Assembly (NCBI GenBank): GCA_003222675.1
Contig: QHWT01000055.1
Span: 1 to 64,000 of the forward strand
DNA from: Acidobacteriota bacterium
Lineage (GTDB): Bacteria > Acidobacteriota > Vicinamibacteria > Vicinamibacterales > 2-12-FULL-66-21
Reading direction: 5' to 3'
Length of the DNA: 64,000 bases
Below are positions 7,665 to 25,870 of the stretch, in pieces. The notes under the pieces were generated by a model, which ran no database searches, was not told where the DNA came from, and saw only the letters and a list, made by a program, of their open reading frames with translations. Both the position numbers and the translations under genes were made by a program. Positions within the stretch are counted from its first letter, which is position 1, and the number at the start of each line of letters is the position of its first letter.

Positions 7665-9689
7665 ATGAGCGAACAGAAGCGAATCGCGAAGGAGCTCGAC
7701 CAACGCGTCGCGGAACGGACGAGAGAACTGGCGGAAGCCAATGAAGCGTTGAAGAAGGAACTTGTAGCGGAACGTCAGCGGACAGAAGCAGCCCGGCGCG
7801 CAAGCGACCAAGATTCACGCGTGATCGTGGGCAGCATGCCTGGCTTGGTCGCAATCCTGACACCGGCGGGTGGCGTCGACGCCGTCAACGACGAACTCGT
7901 CGAATACTTCGGCCGGACACTGGAGGAATTGCAGCAATGGGGGACCAGCGATACGGTTCATCCTGATGATCTCACTCACGTCATCCAGATCTTTACCAAA
8001 GCGATCGCATCGGGTGAGCCATATGACTTCGAGGTGCGCCTCCGACGCTTCGACGGCGCGTATCGTTGGTTTCAGGATCGTGGGCTTCCCCGTCGCGACG
8101 CGAGCGGGGCCATTCTCCGTTGGTACGTTTTGCACACCGACATAGACGAACGCAAACGCACGGAGGACGCGCTCAGGCACAGTGAGGCCAGCTTGCGGGC
8201 GATCGTCGAGACGACGCCTGAGTGCGTACATGTGATTGCCGGCGACGGAACGTTATTGAGCGTGAACGCCGCCGGCGCCGCGATGGCGGGCGCATCATCC
8301 GTGGATCTCATGCTTGGGCGGAACTTCTACGACTTCGTCACGCCGGAAGATCGCGAGCGATATCGTGCGTTCAACGTAAGCGTGTGCGCCGGGCAGAAGG
8401 GCTTGCTGGAGTTTCACATCGTCCGCATGGACGGCGAGCGTCGCCATCTGGAGACGCGCGCAGCCCCGCTGCGCAACGACGATGGCACCGTCGCGCAGCT
8501 GGGCGTGGCGCGTGACATCACAGCTCGCAAAGAGGCCGAGGCACGACTGCGCGAGAGCGAACGCCACCTGCGCCAGTTGACCGAGACCATTCCTGTGATG
8601 CTCTGGAGTGCCACGCCGGAAGGCGCGATCGACTACTGCAATGCGCGGTTCCTTGAGTACACCGGTTTCGACGCCGAGCAGCTCATGGGTAGTGGCGGAT
8701 TTACGAAGATTCTTCATCCCGATGATCTCGATCAAACAGTTCAGGAGTGGTTGTCCTGCATTAGAACCGGCGCGTCGTTCCGGGTCGAGGTGCGCAAGTT
8801 CCACGCGGCAGATGCCACCTATCGATGGTGCATGGCAAACGCGCGCCCGTTACTGGACGAGCACGGGCGCATCCTCAAGTGGTACGGCACGGTCGTGGAC
8901 ATGCACGATTGGAGACAGGCGCAAGAGGAACTGCGCCAGACCCAGGAGAAGCTCGCGTACATGATGCGGGTGACCACGATGGGCGAACTGACCGCATCGA
9001 TCGCCCACGAAGTCAACCAGCCGCTGTCGGGCATCATGACCAACGCCGGCACGTGCTTGCGGATGCTGGCCGCCGATCCTCCAGACCTCGCCGGCGCGTC
9101 CGAGACGGCGCGGCGAACGATTCGCGACGCCAACCGCGCATCCGAGGTGATCGTGCGATTGCGCGCGCTCTTCAGCGGGAAAGAGCTCACGACGGAATCG
9201 ATGGACTTGAACGAGGCGACGCGCGAGGTGATTGCATTGTCGATGAGCGAGCTTCACAGGCATCGTGTGATGCTCCGACCGGAGCTCGCCGACGATCTTC
9301 CGCTCGTCACAGCGAATCGTGTCCAGCTTCAACAGGTCATCCTGAACCTGCTCCGCAATGCTTCCGACGCGATGGTCGGCGTGGACGATGGTCCGCGGCA
9401 ACTTCTCATCAGAACTGAGCGTGACGAAGGCGATCGTGTGCGCCTGACGGTGCAGGATGTCGGGGTTGGCCTCGAGCCCCACGTCATCGACAAGCTCTTT
9501 CAAGCCTTCTACACCACCAAGAGCAGTGGCATGGGCATCGGACTGTCCGTCAGCCGTTCAATCATCGAAAAGCATGGTGGTCGTCTGTGGGGTGAACCGA
9601 ATGACGGGCCCGGCGCCACGTTTGCCTTTTCCATTCCCCGCGTTCCAGAACGTACGACGGGCGCGGCACTCGTCATGAGGAACTCGTGA
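7665..9689 (+). CDS. Soluble histidine kinase with three PAS domains
   Basis: This protein of about 674 residues has no membrane segment. A coiled coil (residues 1-48) is followed by three PAS/PAC units (about 50-170, 175-300, 305-425, each ending in a D-x-D/T-ERK-type linker). Then come a HisKA domain with the phospho-accepting His in SIAHEVNQPLSG and a HATPase domain with N box NLLRNASDAM and G box GMGIGLSVSR. It should sense a cytoplasmic signal and phosphorylate the two regulators encoded directly downstream. The ATG at 7665 has TGAGGA at the right distance; an upstream ATG gives only ten more residues. Its stop overlaps the next start. Confidence 0.9.
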   Translation: MSEQKRIAKELDQRVAERTRELAEANEALKKELVAERQRTEAARRASDQDSRVIVGSMPGLVAILTPAGGVDAVNDELVEYFGRTLEELQQWGTSDTVHPDDLTHVIQIFTKAIASGEPYDFEVRLRRFDGAYRWFQDRGLPRRDASGAILRWYVLHTDIDERKRTEDALRHSEASLRAIVETTPECVHVIAGDGTLLSVNAAGAAMAGASSVDLMLGRNFYDFVTPEDRERYRAFNVSVCAGQKGLLEFHIVRMDGERRHLETRAAPLRNDDGTVAQLGVARDITARKEAEARLRESERHLRQLTETIPVMLWSATPEGAIDYCNARFLEYTGFDAEQLMGSGGFTKILHPDDLDQTVQEWLSCIRTGASFRVEVRKFHAADATYRWCMANARPLLDEHGRILKWYGTVVDMHDWRQAQEELRQTQEKLAYMMRVTTMGELTASIAHEVNQPLSGIMTNAGTCLRMLAADPPDLAGASETARRTIRDANRASEVIVRLRALFSGKELTTESMDLNEATREVIALSMSELHRHRVMLRPELADDLPLVTANRVQLQQVILNLLRNASDAMVGVDDGPRQLLIRTERDEGDRVRLTVQDVGVGLEPHVIDKLFQAFYTTKSSGMGIGLSVSRSIIEKHGGRLWGEPNDGPGATFAFSIPRVPERTTGAALVMRNS

Positions 9690-10060
9690 TGGTCCAGCGT
9701 TCGCTCGTGTCGGTCGTCGACGACGATGAGTCCGTGCGCGAGTCGCTCCCAGACTTGCTGCGGCAATTCGGCTTCGCCGTCCAGGCATTCTCATCGGCCG
9801 AGGCGTTCCTCGCCTCGGAGTTCGTCAGCCAGACCAACTGCCTCATTCTCGACATCGCGATGGTCGGCATGTCGGGACCCGACCTGCAACAAGAACTGAC
9901 TCGCCGGCGGCAGGCGATTCCGATTGTGTTCATCACCGCGCACGGTGACAAAACTGTCCGTCCGCGCCTATTGGCGCAGGGGGCCGCAGAGTGCCTGTTC
10001 AAGCCTTTCAGCGACGATGCGTTGCTCGAAGCGCTCAGCAACGCGCTTGGGATGAGGTAA
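9689..10060 (+). CDS. Single-domain response regulator (receiver only)
   Basis: This 123-residue receiver domain starts VSVVDDDESVRES, has the phospho-acceptor Asp in LILDIAMVGMSG, and the conserved Lys in LFKPFSDDAL. There is no output domain. It is most like FixJ-family receivers and probably competes for, or relays, phosphate in the same pathway as the next gene. Its ATG overlaps the TGA of the histidine kinase, so the two are translationally coupled. Confidence 0.85.
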   Translation: MVQRSLVSVVDDDESVRESLPDLLRQFGFAVQAFSSAEAFLASEFVSQTNCLILDIAMVGMSGPDLQQELTRRRQAIPIVFITAHGDKTVRPRLLAQGAAECLFKPFSDDALLEALSNALGMR

Positions 10061-10146
10061 ACATGCGAACGGTGAGCACCGTTCCATCGGCCACGGCCGT
10101 ATACTCTGAGCCCGCCGCGCAAGCGGGCGAAGTCAAGGGTCGTCAG

Positions 10147-10773
10147 ATGTCGGATGTCACGTCCATCGTCTTCGTCGTTGACGACGACGTTTCAGTGCGC
10201 GAATCGTTGGAGCTGTTGATCAGAGCAGCAGGCTGGCAGCCCGAGACGTTCGCGTCGGCACTGGAATTTCTGTCCCGCCCACGCCCCACGGTTCCATGCT
10301 GCCTGGTGCTCGACGTGTCGCTTCCGGGACTCAGCGGGCTGGAACTGCAGCAACAGCTTGCCGAGCGTACGGACATGCCGATTATCTTCATCACCGGCCA
10401 CGGCGACGTGCCCATGTCCGTGCAAGCGATGAAGGCCGGAGCCGTCGAATTCCTGACGAAGCCGTTCACGAACGACGCGCTGCTGGACGCCATCGGCGGG
10501 GCCATCGAGCGAAGTCGCACCGCGGTGCGGCAGGAGTCGGAAATGCGAGTCCTGCGGAGCTTCTACGCGTCACTCACTCCACGCGAACGCCAGGTGATGG
10601 CGTTGGTCGTCTCGGGTCTGTTGAACAAGCAGGTCGGCGGAGAACTTGGGATCAGCGAGATCACGGTCAAGGCGCACCGGGGTCAGATGATGCGCAAGAT
10701 GAAGGCAGACTCTCTTCCCGAGCTGGTCACCATGGCCGCGAGACTCGGGCTGCGACCTGCGCGAAAGGCCTGA
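10147..10773 (+). CDS. FixJ-family response regulator (receiver plus LuxR HTH)
   Basis: This 208-residue protein has a receiver domain (FVVDDDVSVRES, Asp in LVLDVSLPGLSG, Lys in EFLTKPF), a linker and a LuxR-type HTH (LTPRERQVMALVVSGLLNKQ, then ISEITVKAHRGQMMRKM). It is the likely DNA-binding output of the triple-PAS kinase and the first candidate for binding the shared island promoters. An earlier in-frame ATG at 10063 has a good GAGGT before it and would add 28 residues; I prefer 10147 because the receiver domain begins there. Confidence 0.85.
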   Translation: MSDVTSIVFVVDDDVSVRESLELLIRAAGWQPETFASALEFLSRPRPTVPCCLVLDVSLPGLSGLELQQQLAERTDMPIIFITGHGDVPMSVQAMKAGAVEFLTKPFTNDALLDAIGGAIERSRTAVRQESEMRVLRSFYASLTPRERQVMALVVSGLLNKQVGGELGISEITVKAHRGQMMRKMKADSLPELVTMAARLGLRPARKA

Positions 10774-16821: not shown

Positions 16822-17796
16822 CTACAGAACCACGACAATGCGTCCGCGGCGTACCGGCGATTCCACTCGTTCGTGCGCGATGGCCGTCTCCTCGAGCGGA
16901 AAACGCTCGCCGACCTGGAAACCGTTCCATCCGTTGGCAAGGGCCTCGTTCAGAGCGTGCGCCGCGGCGATCTTCGCCTCAGGCGGAAAGTCATCGCTAC
17001 CGACGAAGTACACTCGGATGTTCTTGAACAGAAGCGGCCAGAACGGGATCGTGGGCATATCGGCATCCGTCGCGTACGTCCCAATGGATCCGCCGACGGC
17101 GAGCACCTCCAAATCGGTTGTCACGTTCGCGCCGAACGCCACTTCGATGACATGGTCGACGCCGCGGGGCGCGAGCGTTCGCACGCGGTCGATCAACTCG
17201 GCGCCCACACGCACAACGTGATGCGCGCCGGCACAGCTCGCGATTTCTTCGTCCGCAGATGAACGCACTGTCGCGACGACGGTCGCCCCAGCACGACGAG
17301 CAAGCTGCACGGCGCACTGACCCACCGCACCTGCCGCTCCTTGCACGAGAACCGTGCGGCGTTCCACAGCACCTGCCACGTGAACAGCGCGATGCGCCGT
17401 AATCCCCGGTATCCCGAGACACGCTCCCTGCTCGAACGACACGGCATCGGGAAGAGGAGCAGCTAGCGCGGTGGGCACGACGGTGTACTCGGCTGCAGTG
17501 CCAAACGGCCGATACGACTGCGCGCCGTAACACCACACGCGGCGGCCCAGCCAGTCGTCTGAGACGCCTTCGCCGACTAAGTCGACGATCCCCGCACCGT
17601 CGCTATGCGGAATGACGCGTGGGTACGGCATTCCATAGCCAAAGGTGTTCTGCCGCTTTTTGGTGTCGCCCGGGTTGATGCCGGATGCAGCGATCCGAAT
17701 CCGAACTTCTCCTGGACCCGGACTCGGATCGGGCATGAACCCGACCTTCAGAACCTCTCGGGCTGGACCCTGCTTCTCGTACCACACTGCGCGCAT
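16822..17796 (-). CDS. Quinone oxidoreductase-like medium-chain dehydrogenase
   Basis: This 324-residue zinc-free MDR protein starts MRAVWYEKQGPAREVLKVG. It has the PGDTKKRQ and IPHSDGAGIVD motifs, the cofactor site VQGAAGAVGQCAVQLARRAG and a C-terminal ANGWNGFQVGERFPLEE. It fits NADPH:quinone reductases that protect against electrophiles. The catalytic zinc ligands of true alcohol dehydrogenases are missing. The ATG at 17796 follows AAGGCGG. It is divergent from the ECF sigma operon. Confidence 0.85.
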   Translation of the reverse strand: MRAVWYEKQGPAREVLKVGFMPDPSPGPGEVRIRIAASGINPGDTKKRQNTFGYGMPYPRVIPHSDGAGIVDLVGEGVSDDWLGRRVWCYGAQSYRPFGTAAEYTVVPTALAAPLPDAVSFEQGACLGIPGITAHRAVHVAGAVERRTVLVQGAAGAVGQCAVQLARRAGATVVATVRSSADEEIASCAGAHHVVRVGAELIDRVRTLAPRGVDHVIEVAFGANVTTDLEVLAVGGSIGTYATDADMPTIPFWPLLFKNIRVYFVGSDDFPPEAKIAAAHALNEALANGWNGFQVGERFPLEETAIAHERVESPVRRGRIVVVL

Positions 17797-17979
17797 GTGC
17801 CGCCTTAGACAGTACTCGTTCGTACGTGTCGGCCTCCTCCTCGTTGAAGACCGCAACGAAGATGCTGATCATGCGGCAGTATGGTAACCGGTGGCATGAG
17901 GGAGGTTCGGTGCCGGGTTCCGGCGCCCTCGTACCGACGCCGGTTGTTACCATGCTGCTTTGCCAGGTACATACCCCCT

Positions 17980-18456
17980 GTGGACCTCGAGACGGTGATC
18001 GCGGAGGTCGCGCCCCGCCTCCTGGCGTATGCCACCGGCCGTACCGGGTGCCGAAGCACCGCCGAGGACGTCGCGCAGGACGCCCTCTCCGCCCTTGTGG
18101 TCCGCTGGCGTAGGCTTGGGCCGCCTGAGTCGCCGGAGGCATTCGTGTTCGCGATTGCCAGACGTCGCGCCGCCAGGGCTGCCGCGCGTCGGGCGCTGCT
18201 GATGCCGCTGGACGCGGTTGTCGCGATTCGCTCGGGCGCTTCCGCTATCGACACGTACGAGCGACGGACGGAGCTGCGGGAGGTCATACGGGCGATGGCG
18301 CACCTGCGCAAGTCCGACCGAGATTTACTGCTGCTCCGGGCGGCAGGGGAGCTGCCGCTCGACCAGATCGCGAAGATCACGCGCACGTCCGTTGCAGCGG
18401 TCAAGATGCGGCTGCACCGCGCACGCGCGCGACTGTCGCAGCTGATGCAGGAGTAA
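17980..18456 (+). CDS. ECF-type RNA polymerase sigma factor
   Basis: This protein of about 158 residues has region 2 (STAEDVAQDALSALVVRWRR, SPEAFVFAIARRRAARAAAR) and region 4 (HLRKSDRDLLLLRAAGELPL, then IAKITRTSVAAVKMRLHRARARL). The GTG at 17980 gives the expected sigma-factor start (DLETVIAEVAPRLLAYATG). A longer frame to 17881 adds an unlikely basic leader. The next two genes, at 4 and 2 bases distance, encode a membrane-spanning anti-sigma candidate and a periplasmic STN protein, suggesting control by an envelope signal. Confidence 0.85.
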   Translation: MDLETVIAEVAPRLLAYATGRTGCRSTAEDVAQDALSALVVRWRRLGPPESPEAFVFAIARRRAARAAARRALLMPLDAVVAIRSGASAIDTYERRTELREVIRAMAHLRKSDRDLLLLRAAGELPLDQIAKITRTSVAAVKMRLHRARARLSQLMQE

Positions 18457-18459
18457 GCG

Positions 18460-18837
18460 ATGCATGACGACGATCCGTCAACCGATGTGGACCGACGGCT
18501 TCGGGCCGCGCTGCGGCCCCCGGAGGATCGTGTGCGCGCGCTCATCGCGGGGGCGCTTTCTGCCGGGCCGGACAGTCGCCCACAGCGCAGGAGGCCTCGA
18601 GTAGTTGCCGTCGCGGCCGCTGCGGCGCTCATCGCGCTGGCGGTTGCGCTTCGCTGGGGCACGGCCCCGCCCCCAGCACCGCATAGACGTCGGACGCCGG
18701 CGGACCTGGAGATCTCCGGAACGAGTTCGCTAATCGTGGTGACACGAGCAGACGGCAGTCGATTCGTATTCGGACCGTCGACAGGATCGCCCGTTCGGGG
18801 CGAGTATGTAATCGCGTTTCCGCCATCCGAGAGGTGA
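18460..18837 (+). CDS. Putative single-pass anti-sigma factor
   Basis: This 125-residue protein has a charged cytoplasmic N-terminal part (residues 1-45), one transmembrane helix (VVAVAAAAALIALAVAL) and a short periplasmic domain. No family motif such as ZAS was recognised. Its place directly behind the ECF sigma gene and its topology make an anti-sigma role likely; this is inference from context. Confidence 0.6.
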   Translation: MHDDDPSTDVDRRLRAALRPPEDRVRALIAGALSAGPDSRPQRRRPRVVAVAAAAALIALAVALRWGTAPPPAPHRRRTPADLEISGTSSLIVVTRADGSRFVFGPSTGSPVRGEYVIAFPPSER

Positions 18838-18839
18838 CT

Positions 18840-19484
18840 ATGAGGACACACCACCAGGCACTGGCTGCGGCCGGCTGCGTTCTGTCGTTGATGGCACCCG
18901 CGTCTGCTGCCCAGTCGTCCGCGGCCCAAGCCGATCCCCAACAGCCTCGGACGTCAGTGATCGCAGTAGAGACGAGCCGGCGGCCCGCGGATCCGCTGGA
19001 CACACGCGTTTCGTTTCAGTTCACGAACAGCCCGGCCGGCGACGTGCTCCGCGTGCTGACAAAGGCAGCTGGACTTCAGGTGGAGGTTCCGTCAACGGTG
19101 TTGCTGCCGGTAACGCTCACTCTCTCGAACATTCGTCTACGCGTTGCGCTCGATGCAATCTGCGATACAGCTGCGTGCGGTTGGCGGCGCGACGGCACAA
19201 CCGTCAGGATCACCGCCGCGGAAAACCACCCGGGTTCCGGCCTTCCGCCGACCGTCTCAATTGCCCTCAAGGATGTGGCGGTTCCCGACGTGTTCCGCGC
19301 GCTCGGCACCGCGCTCGGTATCGCCGTTCGTATCGAAGGGCAGGTTGATCGCCCGCCGGCGACCGTGAACTTCACCTCCGCGGATACCCGGACAGTGCTG
19401 ACGTTTCTGTGTCAGTCCGCGAGCTGCACCTGGGAGTTTGACGACGCGGCGCGAGAGCTACGTATTCGCTTCAAGACGCCTTAG
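18840..19484 (+). CDS. Periplasmic protein with two STN/secretin-N-like domains
   Basis: A signal peptide (to about residue 25, ...APASAAQ) is followed by two related domains. The first reads VSFQFTNSPAGDVLRVLTK, then a V-x-L-P-V-T-L-T-L strand pair. The second reads VSIALKDVAVPDVFRALG and VNFTSADTRTVLTFL. Each ends with the same C-x4-C-x-W signature (CDTAACGW and CQSASCTW), probably a disulfide. Such domains occur at the N-terminus of secretins and of TonB receptors, where they contact anti-sigma factors. Here the protein stands alone after the anti-sigma gene. The ATG at 18840 follows GAGAGG. Confidence 0.75.
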   Translation: MRTHHQALAAAGCVLSLMAPASAAQSSAAQADPQQPRTSVIAVETSRRPADPLDTRVSFQFTNSPAGDVLRVLTKAAGLQVEVPSTVLLPVTLTLSNIRLRVALDAICDTAACGWRRDGTTVRITAAENHPGSGLPPTVSIALKDVAVPDVFRALGTALGIAVRIEGQVDRPPATVNFTSADTRTVLTFLCQSASCTWEFDDAARELRIRFKTP

Positions 19485-19873: not shown

Positions 19874-21085
19874 TCAACCATCACGGACGAGAGCCCGCCG
19901 CATCGAGAACATCGCCATGCTCGAGATCGCGGCAGGCATCGCGGCGGCGAGAAAAATCTGATTGGTCGGCCACTGAAGCCGTATGAGCTCCCCGCCGATC
20001 ACCGGCCCGACGATCGCGCCTGCTCGCCCGATTCCCAGTCCCCAGCCAACGCCGGAAGAACGCATCGACGTCGGATAGAACGTCGCGGCCAGCGCGTTGA
20101 TGCCAATCTGGCTTCCGATCACGCACGACCCGGCGACGAAAACCGCTGCAATCAATGCGGCAGCCGACAACCCGGGTTGGCCAATCAATGCGACCGCTCC
20201 ACATGTCACCGTCAATGAGACGATGAGCACGGGAACGAGACCGCGCCGGCCGATCAGCCAGGCGAGCGTGAATGTGCCGATCACGCCGCCGATCTGAAAC
20301 ACAGTCGCAATCAGCACCGCCGCGGAGATCGAATAGCCCGCCTCTCGCACCACCGTCGGCAGCCAGCTTGCGACGAGATGGACGATCAGCAGGTTCATGA
20401 AATTCAGGATCCAGAGCAGAGTGGTCGCCGCTGCGCGTCCCTCTCGAAAGAGATCGCCGAGAGGGACGCCTTTGCGGCTATCCGCCGTTGCGGTGCGGAG
20501 AACCAGGAACGGCATCGATTCCGGCAGCCGCAAGAACATCAGCGCGCCGATGCAGAGCGCCGCGGCACCGCCGACGTAAAACACCGCGGGCCACCCGAAC
20601 CTGGGAATCAGCCAGGCGGACGCGAGACCGCCGGTCATCGCGCCGCCATTCATTCCCAGCGTCGTCATGACCATGATGGTCGTGATTCGTGTTTGCGGTG
20701 AACTGTATTCGCCAGCGAGCGCCGTCACGGTCGGGACGACCGAACCAAAACCGATTCCTGACAGGAAGCGAAGCGCCAGCATGTCCCGCACGGACGCCGC
20801 GCCGGCCACGAACAGCGTGGCAACCGCGAACCACACCGTCGCTCCGATCAACACCGGCCGGCGGCCGATCTTGTCAGCCAGCATGCCGGCCAGCACGGCG
20901 CCGATCGAGAACCCGACGTTCGCGGCGCCGAAGACGGGTCCCAGCGCCGAGTTCGGGATGTTGAGATCCCCCACGATCGCGGGCGCGACGTAGCCCATCG
21001 CCTGCCAGTCGAAGCCGACCATGAACAAGCACGCACCGCACAGGATGAAGGCGCCAACCTGAACGCCGGCGATCGCGGCCATCAT
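19874..21085 (-). CDS. MFS transporter, aromatic acid:proton symporter type
   Basis: This twelve-helix permease of about 403 residues has the AAHS-like signature GFDWQAMGYVAPAI in helix 1 and the MFS loop motif GMLADKIGRRPVLIGATV. A second loop copy occurs as WLIGRRGLVPVLIV. Members import benzoate-, gallate- or hydroxybenzoate-type acids. The start is one of two ATGs (21085 or 21082) behind GGGAGG. It lies 12 bases after the tannase stop, so the operon would release gallate or ferulate outside and import it. Confidence 0.85.
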   Translation of the reverse strand: MMAAIAGVQVGAFILCGACLFMVGFDWQAMGYVAPAIVGDLNIPNSALGPVFGAANVGFSIGAVLAGMLADKIGRRPVLIGATVWFAVATLFVAGAASVRDMLALRFLSGIGFGSVVPTVTALAGEYSSPQTRITTIMVMTTLGMNGGAMTGGLASAWLIPRFGWPAVFYVGGAAALCIGALMFLRLPESMPFLVLRTATADSRKGVPLGDLFREGRAAATTLLWILNFMNLLIVHLVASWLPTVVREAGYSISAAVLIATVFQIGGVIGTFTLAWLIGRRGLVPVLIVSLTVTCGAVALIGQPGLSAAALIAAVFVAGSCVIGSQIGINALAATFYPTSMRSSGVGWGLGIGRAGAIVGPVIGGELIRLQWPTNQIFLAAAMPAAISSMAMFSMRRALVRDG

Positions 21086-21096
21086 GCCTCCCGACA

Positions 21097-22800
21097 CTAT
21101 CTGCGATGTGGTTCGCGCGCTCGACGATTGAGCCCGGCCTGAATCCCATTCGGGCCGACGTGCAGCAACGATCGATCGCCCGGGGAGCAGCGCCAGCTCG
21201 CGGCAACGTAAGGATCGCCGACGCCATCGTAGCGAGCTGTCTCCGGAAACTTGCAGAGCGGCATTGTTCGGACGACTCCGCCGGCGGGATTGTCGTTCAC
21301 ATACTTGGTGGCGACGATCCCCTCGGGTGCGACGCCGTGTTCGACCCAATTTTCGAGCGCGGTGAGCGTGTCGAAGCTGTTGGGCCCAGGTCCACCGCCG
21401 CAATGCAGCTGACCGGGCGCCATGAACAACCGCGCGTGCTCTTCCACGTGACGGTAACCGCCAAATAGTTCGGCCAGATCTTGATAGAACGAGACCGTGC
21501 CAAATGGGGATAGCCCGGGATCGCTGTAACCGTGATATAGGAGCACCTTGTTGCCGCGCCTCAAGTACGGGACCAGTTGTTCCGCGCGATCGGCGTCACC
21601 GAGTCTAGTTCTTTTGTCGTAGAGCCTGGCGGCATCCGTGGCGACGACGCCGTCGGTTTCAGGCCAATTGAGATTGGCATTGAAGTTCGGATCGCGCATC
21701 ACGAAGTACCTGATGCTCGAATCCGCCAGCCGCCAGCTAATCGGTGCCGCCGCACCCCAGGGCTGAGCGGAGACCAGATCCACCGGACGAATCGACTCGG
21801 CCCAAGGCACGAAGCCGCCCGCAGCATTGAGGTCGCTGACCGGTGAGCCTTGCTGCAGCAGCCTGCCGCGATCGTCGTGAACCTCGCGAATGAAGATCGC
21901 GAGCGCGTCCGCCTGCGCCTGCGTCAAGGTCTGCGGAACCAGCCTGTCCGGATCGAAGGAACATCTGGCGGGGTTCTGAATCAGTCCGTCGATGGCGCCA
22001 TCGGCGCCGTCGCAGTTGTCCCTGACAGCGGCATCGATGACCGAAAGCGCGGCAGGTGGAATGAAGGCGGTGAGGAAAGCCTTCGCGTTCTTGTAGGCGG
22101 CCGTGTTTGCGGCCAGGCGATCCATGAGCGGAGCACCGGCGATGATCCCGTCGTAATCCTCCGGGTAACGCGTGGCCTCCACAAGCGCCTGACGTCCACC
22201 GTTCGAACAGCCGTCGAAATACGAATGCTCGATCGAGAACGCGCCATAAAAGCTCTTGACCAGCTCTTTCGTCGCGACGGCGACCTGATGCTGGGCGCGA
22301 TAGAAGAAATCGATCAACGCCGGTGTGTTCGGCACGCCAGGTGAGATCAACGACCAGCTCGCGTCAGTGGGCGCACTCTGGTGGCCGGAATCGGTCGTCA
22401 CGAAGGCGTAGCCCTTACGAAGCGCGCTCGCAAAATCCACGAGGTTCATGGACGGATCCAGGCTGCCGCCGACGCCGCCCGGTCCGCTCGCGAGCAATTT
22501 GTTGTTCCACTGAACGGGCAGTTTGACTCGAAACGTGGCCGCGCCCGGCCCGGCACCTTCACCATCGGTCGCGACCGATCCGATGACGTCGCAGGACTCG
22601 GGATCCAATCCCGCCGCCACCACGTCGGTCGCGGAGCGAATGGTGACGTTCGGGATGTTGAGCGCCGAGAGTGCCGCGACCGTGCATCCCGGCATCACCA
22701 TCGCGCCAGGCGCCGCGGCCCGCAGGCCTTCGTTCGCTGGGCAACCGAAAAGTGTCGCGGCAGCAATCGCCCCGAGCCGGCAGACCAATCTCTTTTTCAT
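21097..22800 (-). CDS. Tannase/feruloyl esterase family protein, secreted
   Basis: This protein of about 567 residues has a signal peptide (KKRLVCRLGAIAAATLFGC; the Cys could be a lipobox). It carries the family's paired-Cys catalytic layout: FDGCSNGGRQALVEATRYP with the nucleophile Ser after Cys, an Asp in YHGYSDPGLSP, and His-Cys in PGQLHCGGG. Such enzymes cleave galloyl or feruloyl esters from plant polyphenols or cell-wall sugars. The ATG at 22800 follows TGGAGG. It is divergent from the STAND regulator at 22904. Confidence 0.9.
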   Translation of the reverse strand: MKKRLVCRLGAIAAATLFGCPANEGLRAAAPGAMVMPGCTVAALSALNIPNVTIRSATDVVAAGLDPESCDVIGSVATDGEGAGPGAATFRVKLPVQWNNKLLASGPGGVGGSLDPSMNLVDFASALRKGYAFVTTDSGHQSAPTDASWSLISPGVPNTPALIDFFYRAQHQVAVATKELVKSFYGAFSIEHSYFDGCSNGGRQALVEATRYPEDYDGIIAGAPLMDRLAANTAAYKNAKAFLTAFIPPAALSVIDAAVRDNCDGADGAIDGLIQNPARCSFDPDRLVPQTLTQAQADALAIFIREVHDDRGRLLQQGSPVSDLNAAGGFVPWAESIRPVDLVSAQPWGAAAPISWRLADSSIRYFVMRDPNFNANLNWPETDGVVATDAARLYDKRTRLGDADRAEQLVPYLRRGNKVLLYHGYSDPGLSPFGTVSFYQDLAELFGGYRHVEEHARLFMAPGQLHCGGGPGPNSFDTLTALENWVEHGVAPEGIVATKYVNDNPAGGVVRTMPLCKFPETARYDGVGDPYVAASWRCSPGDRSLLHVGPNGIQAGLNRRAREPHRR

Positions 22801-22846
22801 GGCAACCTCCACCGGCGAGTCTGGTGGTCCGGCCATTCGCGCGGGA

Positions 22847-22903: not shown

Positions 22904-25870
22904 ATGGGAGGCGTCAACCCGGACCCGAACTCACAATCGCGTCCAGTCGCGGTCACGAGCCTCATCGCCGCCTCCGTCGAAAAAGTGTTGTGCAGCCGGG
23001 TCTTCAAGACCGCCGGCAGTCTTCGCGACCTTCTGCGGTTTACAGTGCACGAGACCATCTCGGGCCGCGGCGACGAGCTGAAGGAGTACCTGCTGGCCAT
23101 GGCCGTTCTTGGCAAAGAGGACTCGTTCGATCCCAAAGCCGATTCGATCGTCCGTGCCCAGATGCGCAGAGTTCGTGAGCACCTTCGTCAATACTACGCA
23201 ACCGAGGGACGGCACGATCCGATCGTCATCGACATTCCCAAAGGGAGTTACGTGCCGAGGTTCCGGCACGCCGCGGTTGATGGCGCGTTCGTCGTGTCTC
23301 CGGGCGCTGAAGAAAAGCTCATCGTCGGCCGCCAGCAGGAGCTGGCCGATCTGCGATCCGCCTTCGAGTCGGCCGCCGCCGGCCACGGACGGCTGGTCTG
23401 CGTGAGTGGTGAACCGGGCATCGGCAAAACCACCGTCGTCGAATTGTTCCTGCGCGGCCTCGAGCGTTCTGGAACGGATTGTTATGTCGCCCGCGGACGC
23501 TGCTCCGAGCGTCTGGCGGGAAGCGAAGCCTATCTGCCGGTGCTGGAAGCGCTCGACACGTTGCTGCGAGACGCCGACGAATCGGTGTTACGCCTTATGA
23601 GCGCCGCTGCGCCGGCGTGGTACGCGCAGATCGCTCCGCCGGCCGATCATCGCGCCGGAGATCGCGCAGCCGCGGGCAAAGTGCCTTTGCCGGAGCGGCT
23701 GAAGCGAGAGTTCGTGGCGTTCGCGAAGGAAATGTCGGACCGCCGGCCGGTCGTGTTGTTTCTCGACGATGTGCACTGGGCCGATGCGTCCACGGTGGAC
23801 CTCGTGGCGTACGCCGCGGCCCGTTGGGTCTCACAACGGATTCTGATTGTGGCCGCCTATCGTCCCGCCGACTTGTACGCCGCCGATCACCCGTTTGTTC
23901 GCGTCAAGCTCGAGCTGACGGGACATGGCATCTGCGGCGAGATTGCGATGCCGTTTCTGTCGCGCGGCGATGTGGATCGCTATCTCGCGCGGCGATTTCC
24001 CGAGCATCATTTTCCAGCGGAGTTCTCGGCGCGCATCCATGATCGGACGGAAGGGAACCCGCTCTTCATGGCCGATCTCGCGCAGTTTTTGCGCCAGCGC
24101 GGTGTGCTGGCCGAGCAGGCCGGCCGCTGGGTCATGGTCGGTCAGCTGGCGGATGTCGACCGCGAGCTGCCCGAGTCGGTTCGCAGCATGGTCGAGAAGA
24201 AGATCAGTCAGCTGGGAAACGAGGACCGTGCCCTGCTGGTCACGGCCAGCGTCGAGGGCTGCGAGTTCGATTCGGCTGTGCTCTCGGCGGTCCTTGGGAC
24301 GAACGCCGCGGACGTCGAGGAACGGTTGGACGTGCTGGAGTCCATCCATGGTTTGGTGGCCCTCGTTGGCGAGGCGGAGTTACCCGATCGCACCTTCACG
24401 ATGCGATACCGGTTCGTGCACGTGCTCTATCAGAACGCCCTCTACGCGTCGCTGCAGCCGACGCGAAAAGCGTCGCTCAGTACCGCGGTCGCGGAAGCGC
24501 TGTTGGCTCACTACGGCAGCGAGCGCGCCGCGATTGCCTCCGCGCTCGCCATGCTGTTCGAGGCGGCGCGCGATTTCGAGCGCGCGGTCGACTGCTTCCT
24601 CCTCGCCGCGCAGCACGCCGCCCGTTTGTCCGCGAACAAAGAGGCCGTCGTCCTCGCGCGGCGCGGCCTCGGCGCACTGGCGATGTTGCCGGAGACGGGT
24701 CAGCGAGCGCAGCACGAGCTGCGCCTGCAAACCGCGTTGGGGCCGGCATTGATGGCCACCAAAGGGATTGGAGCCGCTGAGGTGGAAACGGTCTACGTTC
24801 GGGCGCAGAACCTGTGTCGACAGGTCGGCGAAACACCACAGCTGTTCACGGTGATGTTTGGTCTCTATCAGTATTGGATAGCGCGCGGGGACTACCAGAC
24901 GTGCCGGGAGTTGGCCGAGCAACTGCTCGCCCTGGCAAACAAGCTCGAAGACCGCGCATTTCTGCTGCTCGCCCACAATTCGCTCGGAAACACGCTCTGG
25001 CTGACCGGCGACATCGTGGGCTCCATCGCACACAACGAACAAGCAATCGCCATTTACGATCGCCGTCAGCATCACGCGCTGGCCACTCTGTATAGCGGGT
25101 GGGACCCGGGAGTGGCGTGCCGCTATGGGCTGGCGAAGAATCTCTGGATTGTTGGTTACCCGGATCGGGCCGTCCGGACGGGCGACGAAGCGATTGCGCT
25201 GGCGCGCGAAATCGATCATGCCTACAGCGAAGTGTGCGCGCTGGTCTTCAGTGCCCTGCTTCACCAGCATCGTCGGGACGCGCGGCGGACTCGTCAGCAA
25301 GCGGAGGCCGCTATTGCACTCGCTACGAACATGGATCTGCCGACCTGGTTACCATGGGCCACCGCGTTGCGGGCCTGGGCGTTGGTCGAGCTGGGCCAGG
25401 CCGGCGAAGGGATCGGCCAATTGCGCGAAGCGATTGCTCGCTGGAAGACGGCGACCGCAGGATGCCTGGTGCCGTATTTCCTGGCCTTGCTGGCCGAAGC
25501 TTGCGCGGCGACTGGAGACACCGAGGAGGCGCGCACCGCAATCGCCGAAGCGCTCGCCGTCACCGAGCGGACGCACGAAGGATATATGGAGGCGGAACTG
25601 CATCGGCTTAACGGCGAGTTACAGATCGACGCCGCCGCAGCCGAAGCGTGTTTCCACCAGGGCATCATGATTGCGCGCCGCCAGAACGCCAAATCGTTCG
25701 AATTGCGCGCCGCGATCAGTCTGAGCCGACTGTATCGGAAGCAAGGCAAGCACGCCGCGGCGCGCGACACATTGGGGCCGATCTGCGCGTGGTTCACCGA
25801 AGGGTTCGACACCGCCGACTTGAAAGAGGCCGGCGCGCTCCTCGAGATCCTCCGCGCCGACCACCGCTGA
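22904..25870 (+). CDS. STAND-type ATPase regulator with TPR repeats
   Basis: This 988-residue protein has an N-terminal domain of about 130 residues (GSLRDLLRFTVHETISGRGD, FDPKADSIVRAQMRRVREHL, IDIPKGSYVPRF) known from acidobacterial regulators and probably a winged-helix DNA-binding unit. An AAA/NACHT-like ATPase follows (Walker A GEPGIGKTTVVE, Walker B VVLFLDDVHWADAS), then a long alpha-helical TPR region (about 560-980). It resembles MalT/AfsR-like regulators that bind a ligand through the repeats. Divergent placement next to the tannase-MFS operon suggests it controls polyphenol-ester use. Confidence 0.8.
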   Translation: MGGVNPDPNSQSRPVAVTSLIAASVEKVLCSRVFKTAGSLRDLLRFTVHETISGRGDELKEYLLAMAVLGKEDSFDPKADSIVRAQMRRVREHLRQYYATEGRHDPIVIDIPKGSYVPRFRHAAVDGAFVVSPGAEEKLIVGRQQELADLRSAFESAAAGHGRLVCVSGEPGIGKTTVVELFLRGLERSGTDCYVARGRCSERLAGSEAYLPVLEALDTLLRDADESVLRLMSAAAPAWYAQIAPPADHRAGDRAAAGKVPLPERLKREFVAFAKEMSDRRPVVLFLDDVHWADASTVDLVAYAAARWVSQRILIVAAYRPADLYAADHPFVRVKLELTGHGICGEIAMPFLSRGDVDRYLARRFPEHHFPAEFSARIHDRTEGNPLFMADLAQFLRQRGVLAEQAGRWVMVGQLADVDRELPESVRSMVEKKISQLGNEDRALLVTASVEGCEFDSAVLSAVLGTNAADVEERLDVLESIHGLVALVGEAELPDRTFTMRYRFVHVLYQNALYASLQPTRKASLSTAVAEALLAHYGSERAAIASALAMLFEAARDFERAVDCFLLAAQHAARLSANKEAVVLARRGLGALAMLPETGQRAQHELRLQTALGPALMATKGIGAAEVETVYVRAQNLCRQVGETPQLFTVMFGLYQYWIARGDYQTCRELAEQLLALANKLEDRAFLLLAHNSLGNTLWLTGDIVGSIAHNEQAIAIYDRRQHHALATLYSGWDPGVACRYGLAKNLWIVGYPDRAVRTGDEAIALAREIDHAYSEVCALVFSALLHQHRRDARRTRQQAEAAIALATNMDLPTWLPWATALRAWALVELGQAGEGIGQLREAIARWKTATAGCLVPYFLALLAEACAATGDTEEARTAIAEALAVTERTHEGYMEAELHRLNGELQIDAAAAEACFHQGIMIARRQNAKSFELRAAISLSRLYRKQGKHAAARDTLGPICAWFTEGFDTADLKEAGALLEILRADHR

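What the first reader, a model, noticed from the sequence alone, without database searches (positions are those of the whole stretch)
17980..19484. ECF sigma / anti-sigma / free-standing twin STN protein
In cell-surface signalling the STN domain belongs to a TonB receptor. Here a soluble periplasmic protein with two STN-like domains, each closed by C-x4-C-x-W, follows the sigma and anti-sigma genes, with no receptor nearby. It may be a stand-alone periplasmic sensor for the anti-sigma factor, perhaps redox-sensitive through the Cys pairs.
Basis: inference. Interest (0 to 1): 0.55.

Follow-up and report, generated by a model that had tools for sequence, protein, structure and literature searches.

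The report
Receptor-less STN sigma-factor operon, Acidobacteriota
A bacterial operon encodes a gene-switch protein, a tiny membrane protein likely to hold it, and a free periplasmic protein built from repeats of a domain normally attached to an outer-membrane receptor; it recurs across its phylum and looks like a receptor-less version of a known signalling system whose signal is unknown.

Summary
At 17980-19484 lie an ECF sigma factor, a 125-aa membrane protein and a secreted protein of two STN domains, each with C-x4-C-x-W. The trio is real: among 28 distinct loci with the STN protein or its sigma, 19 carry all three genes in the same order (one with sigma and membrane protein fused), 3 are cut by a contig end and 6 are broken or partial. 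In 17 of 19 the last two genes overlap by 4 nt. The third gene is not a secretin fragment. A promoter-like motif, GTKACC-N15-GTAC, sits 32-37 nt before the sigma start codon in 20 of 21 sigma genes examined (18 strictly), including 8 of 8 found after the motif was fixed; in the window's genome a tight form of it occurs once, at this operon. Best reading: an autoregulated ECF system in which a free poly-STN protein replaces the TonB receptor's signalling domain and shields a minimal, CnrY-like anti-sigma factor. Anti-sigma activity, the binding step and the signal are inferred. The Cys pairs look structural; redox sensing is untested. A free STN signalling protein is already known (VreA), so this is a new variant of cell-surface signalling, not a new kind.

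The parts
17946..17972 (+). Putative promoter of the operon, read by its own sigma: GTTACC (17946-17951), 15 nt, GTACAT (17967-17972); 7 nt before the sigma start codon, so probably a leaderless mRNA (inference)
   Evidence: Same motif at the same place in 20 of 21 sigma genes; single match of GTKACC-N14-GGTACWT and of GTKACC-N15-GTACWT in the 7.16-Mb genome
17980..18456 (+). ECF sigma factor, 158 aa, GTG start
   Evidence: Pfam Sigma70_r2 and r4_2; 41-48% identity to 6 relatives
18460..18837 (+). Putative minimal anti-sigma factor, 125 aa: two cytosolic helices (residues 6-34), one membrane span (about 47-67), periplasmic tail of about 55 residues predicted as short beta strands
   Evidence: Hydropathy; AF2 model of low to middling confidence; no Pfam family; its homologue is fused to the sigma in G038/L034
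18834..19484 (+). Twin-STN periplasmic protein: 216 aa from GTG 18834 (overlaps the stop of the gene before) or 214 aa from ATG 18840
   Evidence: STN by Pfam, profile and fold; start/stop overlap
18840..18911 (+). Likely signal peptide of the STN protein (residues 1-24)
   Evidence: Read by eye; hydrophobic stretch 7-25, mean KD 1.44; no signal-peptide program was run
18999..19217 (+). STN unit 1 (residues 54-126), with Cys108 and Cys113
   Evidence: Unit profile iE 1e-26, profile built from this family; AF2 elements 56-126
19248..19475 (+). STN unit 2 (residues 137-212), with Cys191 and Cys196
   Evidence: Unit profile iE 9e-26, profile built from this family; AF2 elements 138-211

Best explanation
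A self-contained, receptor-less relative of cell-surface signalling. The sigma factor transcribes its own operon from a GTKACC-N15-GTAC promoter. The small membrane protein holds the sigma at the membrane through two short cytosolic helices (a class II, CnrY-like anti-sigma domain). The STN protein sits free in the periplasm and binds the anti-sigma factor's short beta tail by sheet-to-sheet contact, shielding it from periplasmic proteolysis; a periplasmic signal changes that contact, the anti-sigma factor is cleaved, and the freed sigma makes more of all three proteins. Shown here by computation: gene order, overlapping genes, the conserved motif, the STN fold, the membrane span, and one natural fusion of sigma and membrane protein. 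Inferred: that the motif is the sigma's promoter, anti-sigma activity, STN-tail binding, proteolysis. Unknown: the signal.
For: 19 of 28 distinct loci carry all three genes in order, and 17 of 19 overlap at the last junction. In G038/L034 the sigma and membrane protein are one open frame of 259 aa (span near residues 181-200, KD 2.03), a sigma/anti-sigma fusion as described for IutY (PMC8999054, passages). Motif in 20 of 21 sigma genes: 10 strict and 12 relaxed of 13, then 8 strict of 8 in loci found later; shuffles give a mean of 0.003 of 13 (300 rounds) and 0.002 of 8 (500 rounds) for the strict form. Both STN halves fold like secretin N0, the FecA, FpvA, FoxA and PupB signalling domains, and the STN-like part of the regulators PupR and BDI_1681, Z 8.3-11.2. 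Precedents: the FoxA signalling domain binds FoxR without the signal and protects it from proteolysis (PMC11637429, passages); VreA is a free periplasmic STN protein working with VreI and VreR (PMC2729926, passages); RseB shields RseA (PMC4598750, passages).
Against: No binding, inhibition, proteolysis or signal was tested; no complex was modelled. The membrane protein matches no anti-sigma family above cut-off (best NCBIfam antisigma 8.4e-4, 19.4 bits against a cut-off of 100). The positive-inside rule is only partly met: more R/K before than after the span in 5 of 8 full-length members, equal in 1, fewer in 2, and L031 has a second hydrophobic stretch, KD 1.89. The tail lacks the STN-like domain by which FoxR and PupR bind their partner, so the published interface cannot be copied over. 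In G047 and G071 an STN gene survives although the sigma is deleted, and in G250 it stands alone as far as the contig shows, so the STN protein may have another role. No convincing second target promoter was found, which is odd for a stress response.
Confidence: 0.53

Rival explanations
1. Redox sensor: the Cys pairs open and close with the periplasmic thiol state and so switch the STN protein's grip on the anti-sigma factor.
For: CxxxxC in at least one unit of 24 of 25 STN proteins and in 0 of 16 STN stretches from long-frame hits, which mostly carry Ile or Leu there; the pair spans the end of a helix and the start of a strand.
Against: A conserved periplasmic Cys pair is more often a structural disulfide (general knowledge). 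Several members lack the pair in one unit, and L051 lacks both yet keeps the full trio and the motif. No redox gene recurs among the 20 flanking proteins scanned.
Confidence: 0.12
2. Secretin or pilus monitor: the STN protein mimics a secretin N0 domain and reports on free, misassembled or busy secretins, or docks to them.
For: Nearest PDB sequence relatives are PilQ proteins (3jc8 4.8e-9); PilQ N0 and DotD are among the top folds. [quoted passage not shown]
Against: No secretin family is among the 20 flanking proteins scanned. The STN profile hits 172 of 193 genomes of the class at E up to 0.001, mostly long frames that look secretin-like but were not all checked, whereas the free STN protein is in 9, so its presence does not track them.
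Confidence: 0.13
3. The STN protein is mainly the output: the sigma exists to make the periplasmic STN protein when needed, and sensing is done by the membrane protein's tail.
For: The only well-supported promoter is that of the operon itself; in some genomes STN proteins grow to 4 units plus a C-terminal domain.
Against: The tail is only about 55 residues with little conservation; the closest published parallels use the STN part for signalling.
Confidence: 0.13
4. An ordinary ECF operon whose small membrane protein and STN protein are unrelated passengers.
For: Broken or partial copies are common (6 of 28 loci), so selection on the whole trio may be weak.
Against: Same order with 4-nt overlaps in 17 of 19 full trios in at least two classes; one sigma-membrane protein fusion.
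Confidence: 0.04

Closest known systems
PUMA3 system VreA-VreI-VreR of Pseudomonas aeruginosa (PMC2729926, passages read)
   Same: A small, mostly soluble protein with an STN domain and no beta-barrel, probably periplasmic, encoded with an ECF sigma and a membrane sigma-factor regulator.
   Different: VreA has one STN domain plus a TolA/TonB-like domain and forms an operon with the sigma gene, with the regulator in another unit; regulators of that kind have a large periplasmic part. Here there are 2-4 STN units, the order is sigma, membrane protein, STN, and the membrane protein is minimal.
Classical cell-surface signalling (FecI-FecR-FecA, FoxI-FoxR-FoxA, PupR-PupB)
   Same: ECF sigma, membrane-bound regulator, STN domain in the periplasm; the FoxA signalling domain protects FoxR (PMC11637429, passages).
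   Different: No linked TonB receptor found; the membrane protein shows no FecR domain or STN-like C-terminal domain.
CnrH-CnrY-CnrX of Cupriavidus (PMC4598750 and PMC7406223, passages)
   Same: Receptor-less trio; an anti-sigma factor whose two cytosolic helices embrace the sigma; a separate sensor with a periplasmic domain.
   Different: CnrX senses cobalt and nickel and has another fold (fold recalled); no sequence match between the membrane protein and any PDB anti-sigma factor was found.
RpoE-RseA-RseB of Escherichia coli (PMC4598750, passages)
   Same: Sigma, membrane anti-sigma factor, and a free periplasmic protein that binds the anti-sigma factor and blocks its cleavage; same gene order (recalled).
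   Different: RseB has another fold and RseA a larger anti-sigma domain (both recalled).
DotD of Legionella (PDB 3ady)
   Same: A stand-alone protein of the STN/N0 fold (Z 10.4, 84 residues aligned).
   Different: DotD belongs to the Dot/Icm secretion system, one unit, not linked to a sigma factor (recalled).

Membership tests
STN / secretin N0 domain family (PF07660) | Sequence match to STN | tested here: met
   14 of 14 aligned members match STN at E up to 1, best 3.9e-8; the window protein 4e-5, below the curated cut-off
STN / secretin N0 domain family (PF07660) | STN/N0 fold in both halves | tested here: met
   AF2 mean pLDDT 80.7, near 90 over most of both units, pTM 0.49; Z 8.3-11.2 to N0, FecA, FpvA, FoxA, PupB and PupR domains, some phage baseplate domains scoring as high
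Secretin (or fragment of one) | Secretin gate domain in the protein or a secretin gene beside it | tested here: not met
   No gate domain listed for 14 members or for 10 STN proteins found later, only STN/N0-type families; none in 20 flanking proteins
Classical cell-surface signalling system | ECF sigma factor gene in the operon | tested here: met
Classical cell-surface signalling system | Linked TonB-dependent receptor carrying the STN domain | tested here: not met
   None among 7 window neighbours and 20 flanking proteins of 11 loci; an unlinked receptor was not sought
Classical cell-surface signalling system | FecR-type regulator (FecR domain, STN-like C-terminus) | tested here: not met
   9 members scanned against Pfam at E up to 10, no FecR listed; only about 55 residues beyond the span
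VreA/PUMA3-type system | Free periplasmic STN protein encoded with ECF sigma and membrane regulator | tested here: met
   19 full trios; periplasmic location is inferred
VreA/PUMA3-type system | TolA/TonB-like C-terminal domain on the STN protein | tested here: not met
   The window protein's second half is an STN unit
Class II (CnrY-like) anti-sigma factor | Short cytosolic part of two helices before one membrane span | tested here: met
   AF2 helices 6-17 and 22-34, span 47-67; mean pLDDT 64.4 overall, block means 65-86 over residues 1-40; predicted only
Class II (CnrY-like) anti-sigma factor | Binds and inhibits the sigma by wrapping both domains | not testable with these tools
RseB-like co-regulator | Binds the anti-sigma periplasmic tail and blocks its cleavage | not testable with these tools
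   Needs binding and proteolysis assays

The most novel reading that the evidence does not exclude
Acidobacteriota hold an undescribed class of receptor-less STN signalling: arrays of 2-4 Cys-stapled STN domains, detached from any receptor or secretin, sense a periplasmic state (thiol redox, or the state of other STN-bearing machines) and gate a minimal anti-sigma factor whose sigma drives essentially only its own leaderless operon, forming a closed self-sensing switch.
Probability: 0.28. Interest if true: 0.7.

Novelty: new variant of a known kind. Interest (0 to 1): 0.52.

Why it matters
In standard cell-surface signalling the STN domain is one part of a large receptor, which makes it hard to tell what STN itself does to the anti-sigma factor. 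Here evolution seems to have separated it: a soluble poly-STN protein, a 125-residue membrane protein and a sigma with a defined promoter-like motif, all small enough to rebuild in a laboratory strain. That would test directly whether STN contact protects an anti-sigma factor from proteolysis, the point recently proposed for FoxA and FoxR. The motif also offers a handle for finding the targets of this ECF group; I made no paper search for the motif itself.

Tried and rejected
Secretin fragment: rejected. 'Split FecR': the STN protein does match FecR_C (1.1e-4; 6 of 14 members, best 3.7e-7), but the membrane protein shows no FecR domain, so this stays an idea. Known anti-sigma structure for the membrane protein by sequence in the PDB: none.

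A wider regulon. GTKACC-N14-GGTACWT in 20 genomes gave 4 hits, 3 at own sigma genes and one in G027; but it also missed the own promoter of 5 of the 8 full-trio genomes in that call (G008, G015, G038, G052, G487), so it is too tight to list targets. One mismatch in the own genome: 9 hits against 23 for the reversed control. GTKACC-N15-GTACWT in 11 trio genomes: 12 sites, 6 own, control 12; none of the other 6 leads into a convincing frame. GTGACC-N14-GGTACW in 12 genomes of another class: 30 sites, 10 own, 20 others against 6 control. That last excess is unexplained. Of the 20 others, L124 and L144 have a start-like codon 10 nt downstream but lie inside longer open frames; L145 and L142 are intergenic by my test, 28 and 55 nt before frames of 482 and 481 aa. 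I do not call any of them targets, and weaker targets cannot be excluded.

The STN protein alone as query found nothing in genome contigs; the sigma alignment worked. No terminator was found after the operon. The first Cys control picked several frames on the wrong strand and was redone. One row of the first STN alignment (L030, used) began two residues before its start codon. Six of the 20 genomes hit (G641, G623, G572, G379, G264, G636, among the weakest) were not examined. The two broken STN genes G056 and G197 were left out of the 25 proteins. The 2021 ECF reclassification (recalled) is not held, so no ECF group number was assigned and prior mention there cannot be excluded. That the trio is not in print rests only on the paper searches, in open-licence papers.

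Full report
1. What is there. The window carries three genes on the + strand: an ECF sigma factor (GTG 17980-18456), a 125-aa protein with one membrane span (18460-18837) and a secreted protein of two STN units (18834 or 18840 to 19484). No tool named the window's own genome.

2. Recurrence. Profile searches found the free STN family in 9 of 193 genomes of the window's class (E up to 2e-23, then a gap to 2.9e-10), in 7 of 396 genomes drawn from the phylum at E up to 1e-11, and in 20 of 148 genomes of a second class at E up to 1e-12, of which I examined 14. A scan with the sigma alignment gave 11 loci. Duplicates were removed by shared sequence, leaving 28 distinct loci. Full order sigma, membrane protein, STN: 19 (window, G008, G015, G038, G052, G476, G487, G534, L053, L055, L063, G625, G600, G406, G561, G559, G490, G519, G560). 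Cut by a contig end: 3 (G001 and L054; G564, whose contig starts inside the end of the sigma gene). Broken or partial: 6 (G047, G071, G056, G197, G250, L061). In G038 sigma and membrane protein are one open frame of 259 aa. In G047 and G071 the sigma is reduced to about its first 14 and 23 residues, joined in frame to the membrane protein's tail or to the membrane protein. One record of a full trio (L058, the same as G534) is titled Deltaproteobacteria but is called the same phylum as the window.

3. Operon structure. The stop of the membrane protein (or of the fusion) overlaps the STN start as ATGA or GTGA in 17 of 19. Upstream of the sigma gene lies GTKACC-N15-GTAC. In the first 13 upstream regions the strict form (GTKACC-N15-GTAC followed by A, C or T) is in 10 and a relaxed form in 12 (miss: L031), 32-36 nt before the start codon, against a mean of 0.003 of 13 for the strict form in 300 rounds of shuffles (both forms were fitted to these data). 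In 8 sigma genes found afterwards the strict form is in 8 of 8, against 0.002 of 8 in 500 rounds; L110 and L114 need a start codon upstream of the conserved core, 11 and 9 nt after the motif. A relaxed form also remains before the deleted sigma genes of G047 and G071. The 5-11 nt between motif and start codon imply a leaderless mRNA (inference).

4. Targets. In the window's genome GTKACC-N14-GGTACWT and GTKACC-N15-GTACWT each occur once, at this operon. These tight patterns miss the own promoter in 5 of 8 and 5 of 11 trio genomes of those calls, so they cannot exclude other targets. In a second class there are 20 non-own sites against 6 in the control; I found none convincing, but the excess is unexplained.

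5. The STN protein. AF2 gives two units with elements at residues 56-126 and 138-211 and pLDDT near 90 over most of them. Close solved folds are PilQ N0 (Z 11.2), DotD (10.4), the anti-sigma protein BDI_1681 (9.8), PupR (9.5), FecA (8.5), FpvA (8.5), FoxA (8.4) and PupB (8.3); some phage and injection-system baseplate domains score as high, so fold alone does not fix function. Across 25 STN proteins of 24 loci the unit number is 2 to 4. Members from G406, G561, G559, G490, G519 and G560 add a C-terminal stretch of about 200-250 residues without a Pfam match. G052 seems to have a membrane anchor in place of a signal peptide (by eye). CxxxxC is in at least one unit of 24 of 25 proteins (23 by the motif, plus L050 with C86 and C91); STN stretches of 16 long-frame hits have it in none.

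6. The membrane protein. Eight full-length members each have a hydrophobic stretch of KD 2.17-2.92; only L031 has a second one above 1.6. R/K counts favour a cytosolic N-terminus in 5 of 8, are equal in 1 and opposed in 2; the sigma fusion of G038 supports that topology. AF2 predicts two cytosolic helices, a span and four short strands, the strands at low confidence. There is no Pfam family; NCBIfam gives antisigma in 3 of 8 members, best 8.4e-4 and far below its cut-off, and CU044_5270 weakly in 4 of 8. The size and the two-helix cytosolic part fit CnrY-like class II anti-sigma factors; a survey of class I domains removed those shorter than 50 residues because they could be class II (PMC7406223, passages).

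7. Mechanism. The parts and the precedents fit an STN-based brake on an anti-sigma factor. FoxA's signalling domain binds FoxR without the signal and protects it from proteolysis, after FoxA itself is cleaved (PMC11637429, passages). RseB does the analogous job for RseA (PMC4598750, passages). VreA shows that an STN protein can work without a receptor barrel (PMC2729926, passages). Not shown: that the STN protein touches the tail, that the membrane protein inhibits the sigma, and what the signal is. The tail lacks the STN-like partner domain known from FoxR and PupR, so the contact must differ in detail.

8. Novelty. A free STN signalling protein is known, so this is a new variant: several STN units, a minimal anti-sigma factor, a self-directed promoter motif, found so far only in genomes that the collections searched place in one phylum. 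Nine paper searches did not return a description; the main ECF classification paper could not be read. A FEMS review of cell-surface signalling holds none of the words VreA, PUMA3, STN or Acidobacteria (word search).

Noticed in passing
L111:4819-6162, L112:4898-6727, L113:3469-5232, L114:2816-4333, L115:4901-6742, L116:435-2240: STN proteins of six genomes end in a C-terminal stretch of about 200-250 residues with motifs like WLPFG and GNYLLITPP and no Pfam match; a candidate ligand-binding part. L115 has two STN genes in tandem.
   Followed up: partly
L038 (G047) about 8966-9160 minus strand; L029 (G071) about 10041-10560 minus strand: The sigma gene is deleted in frame twice, leaving the motif, the start and about 14 or 23 residues joined to the downstream protein, while the STN gene stays open.
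   Followed up: partly
window 17881-17891 and 17940-17953: ATGGTAACCGG and CCGGTTGTTACCAT form a near inverted repeat around the operon promoter, beside the divergent alcohol dehydrogenase-like gene (16822-17856); possible operator. Seen by eye only.
   Followed up: no
L033:7451-8149 (G052): The STN protein seems to have an N-terminal membrane span instead of a cleavable signal peptide.
   Followed up: no
L051:1082-1969 (G487): A long glycine-rich linker separates the two STN units, and both Cys pairs are missing.
   Followed up: no
window 22904-25870: A 988-aa AAA_16/TPR protein, likely a signalling ATPase, lies near a tannase-family gene (21097-22836) and an MFS transporter (19874-21403).
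   Followed up: no
L058 / G534: A record titled Deltaproteobacteria is placed in the same phylum as the window by the genome collection; the record title is probably wrong.
   Followed up: no
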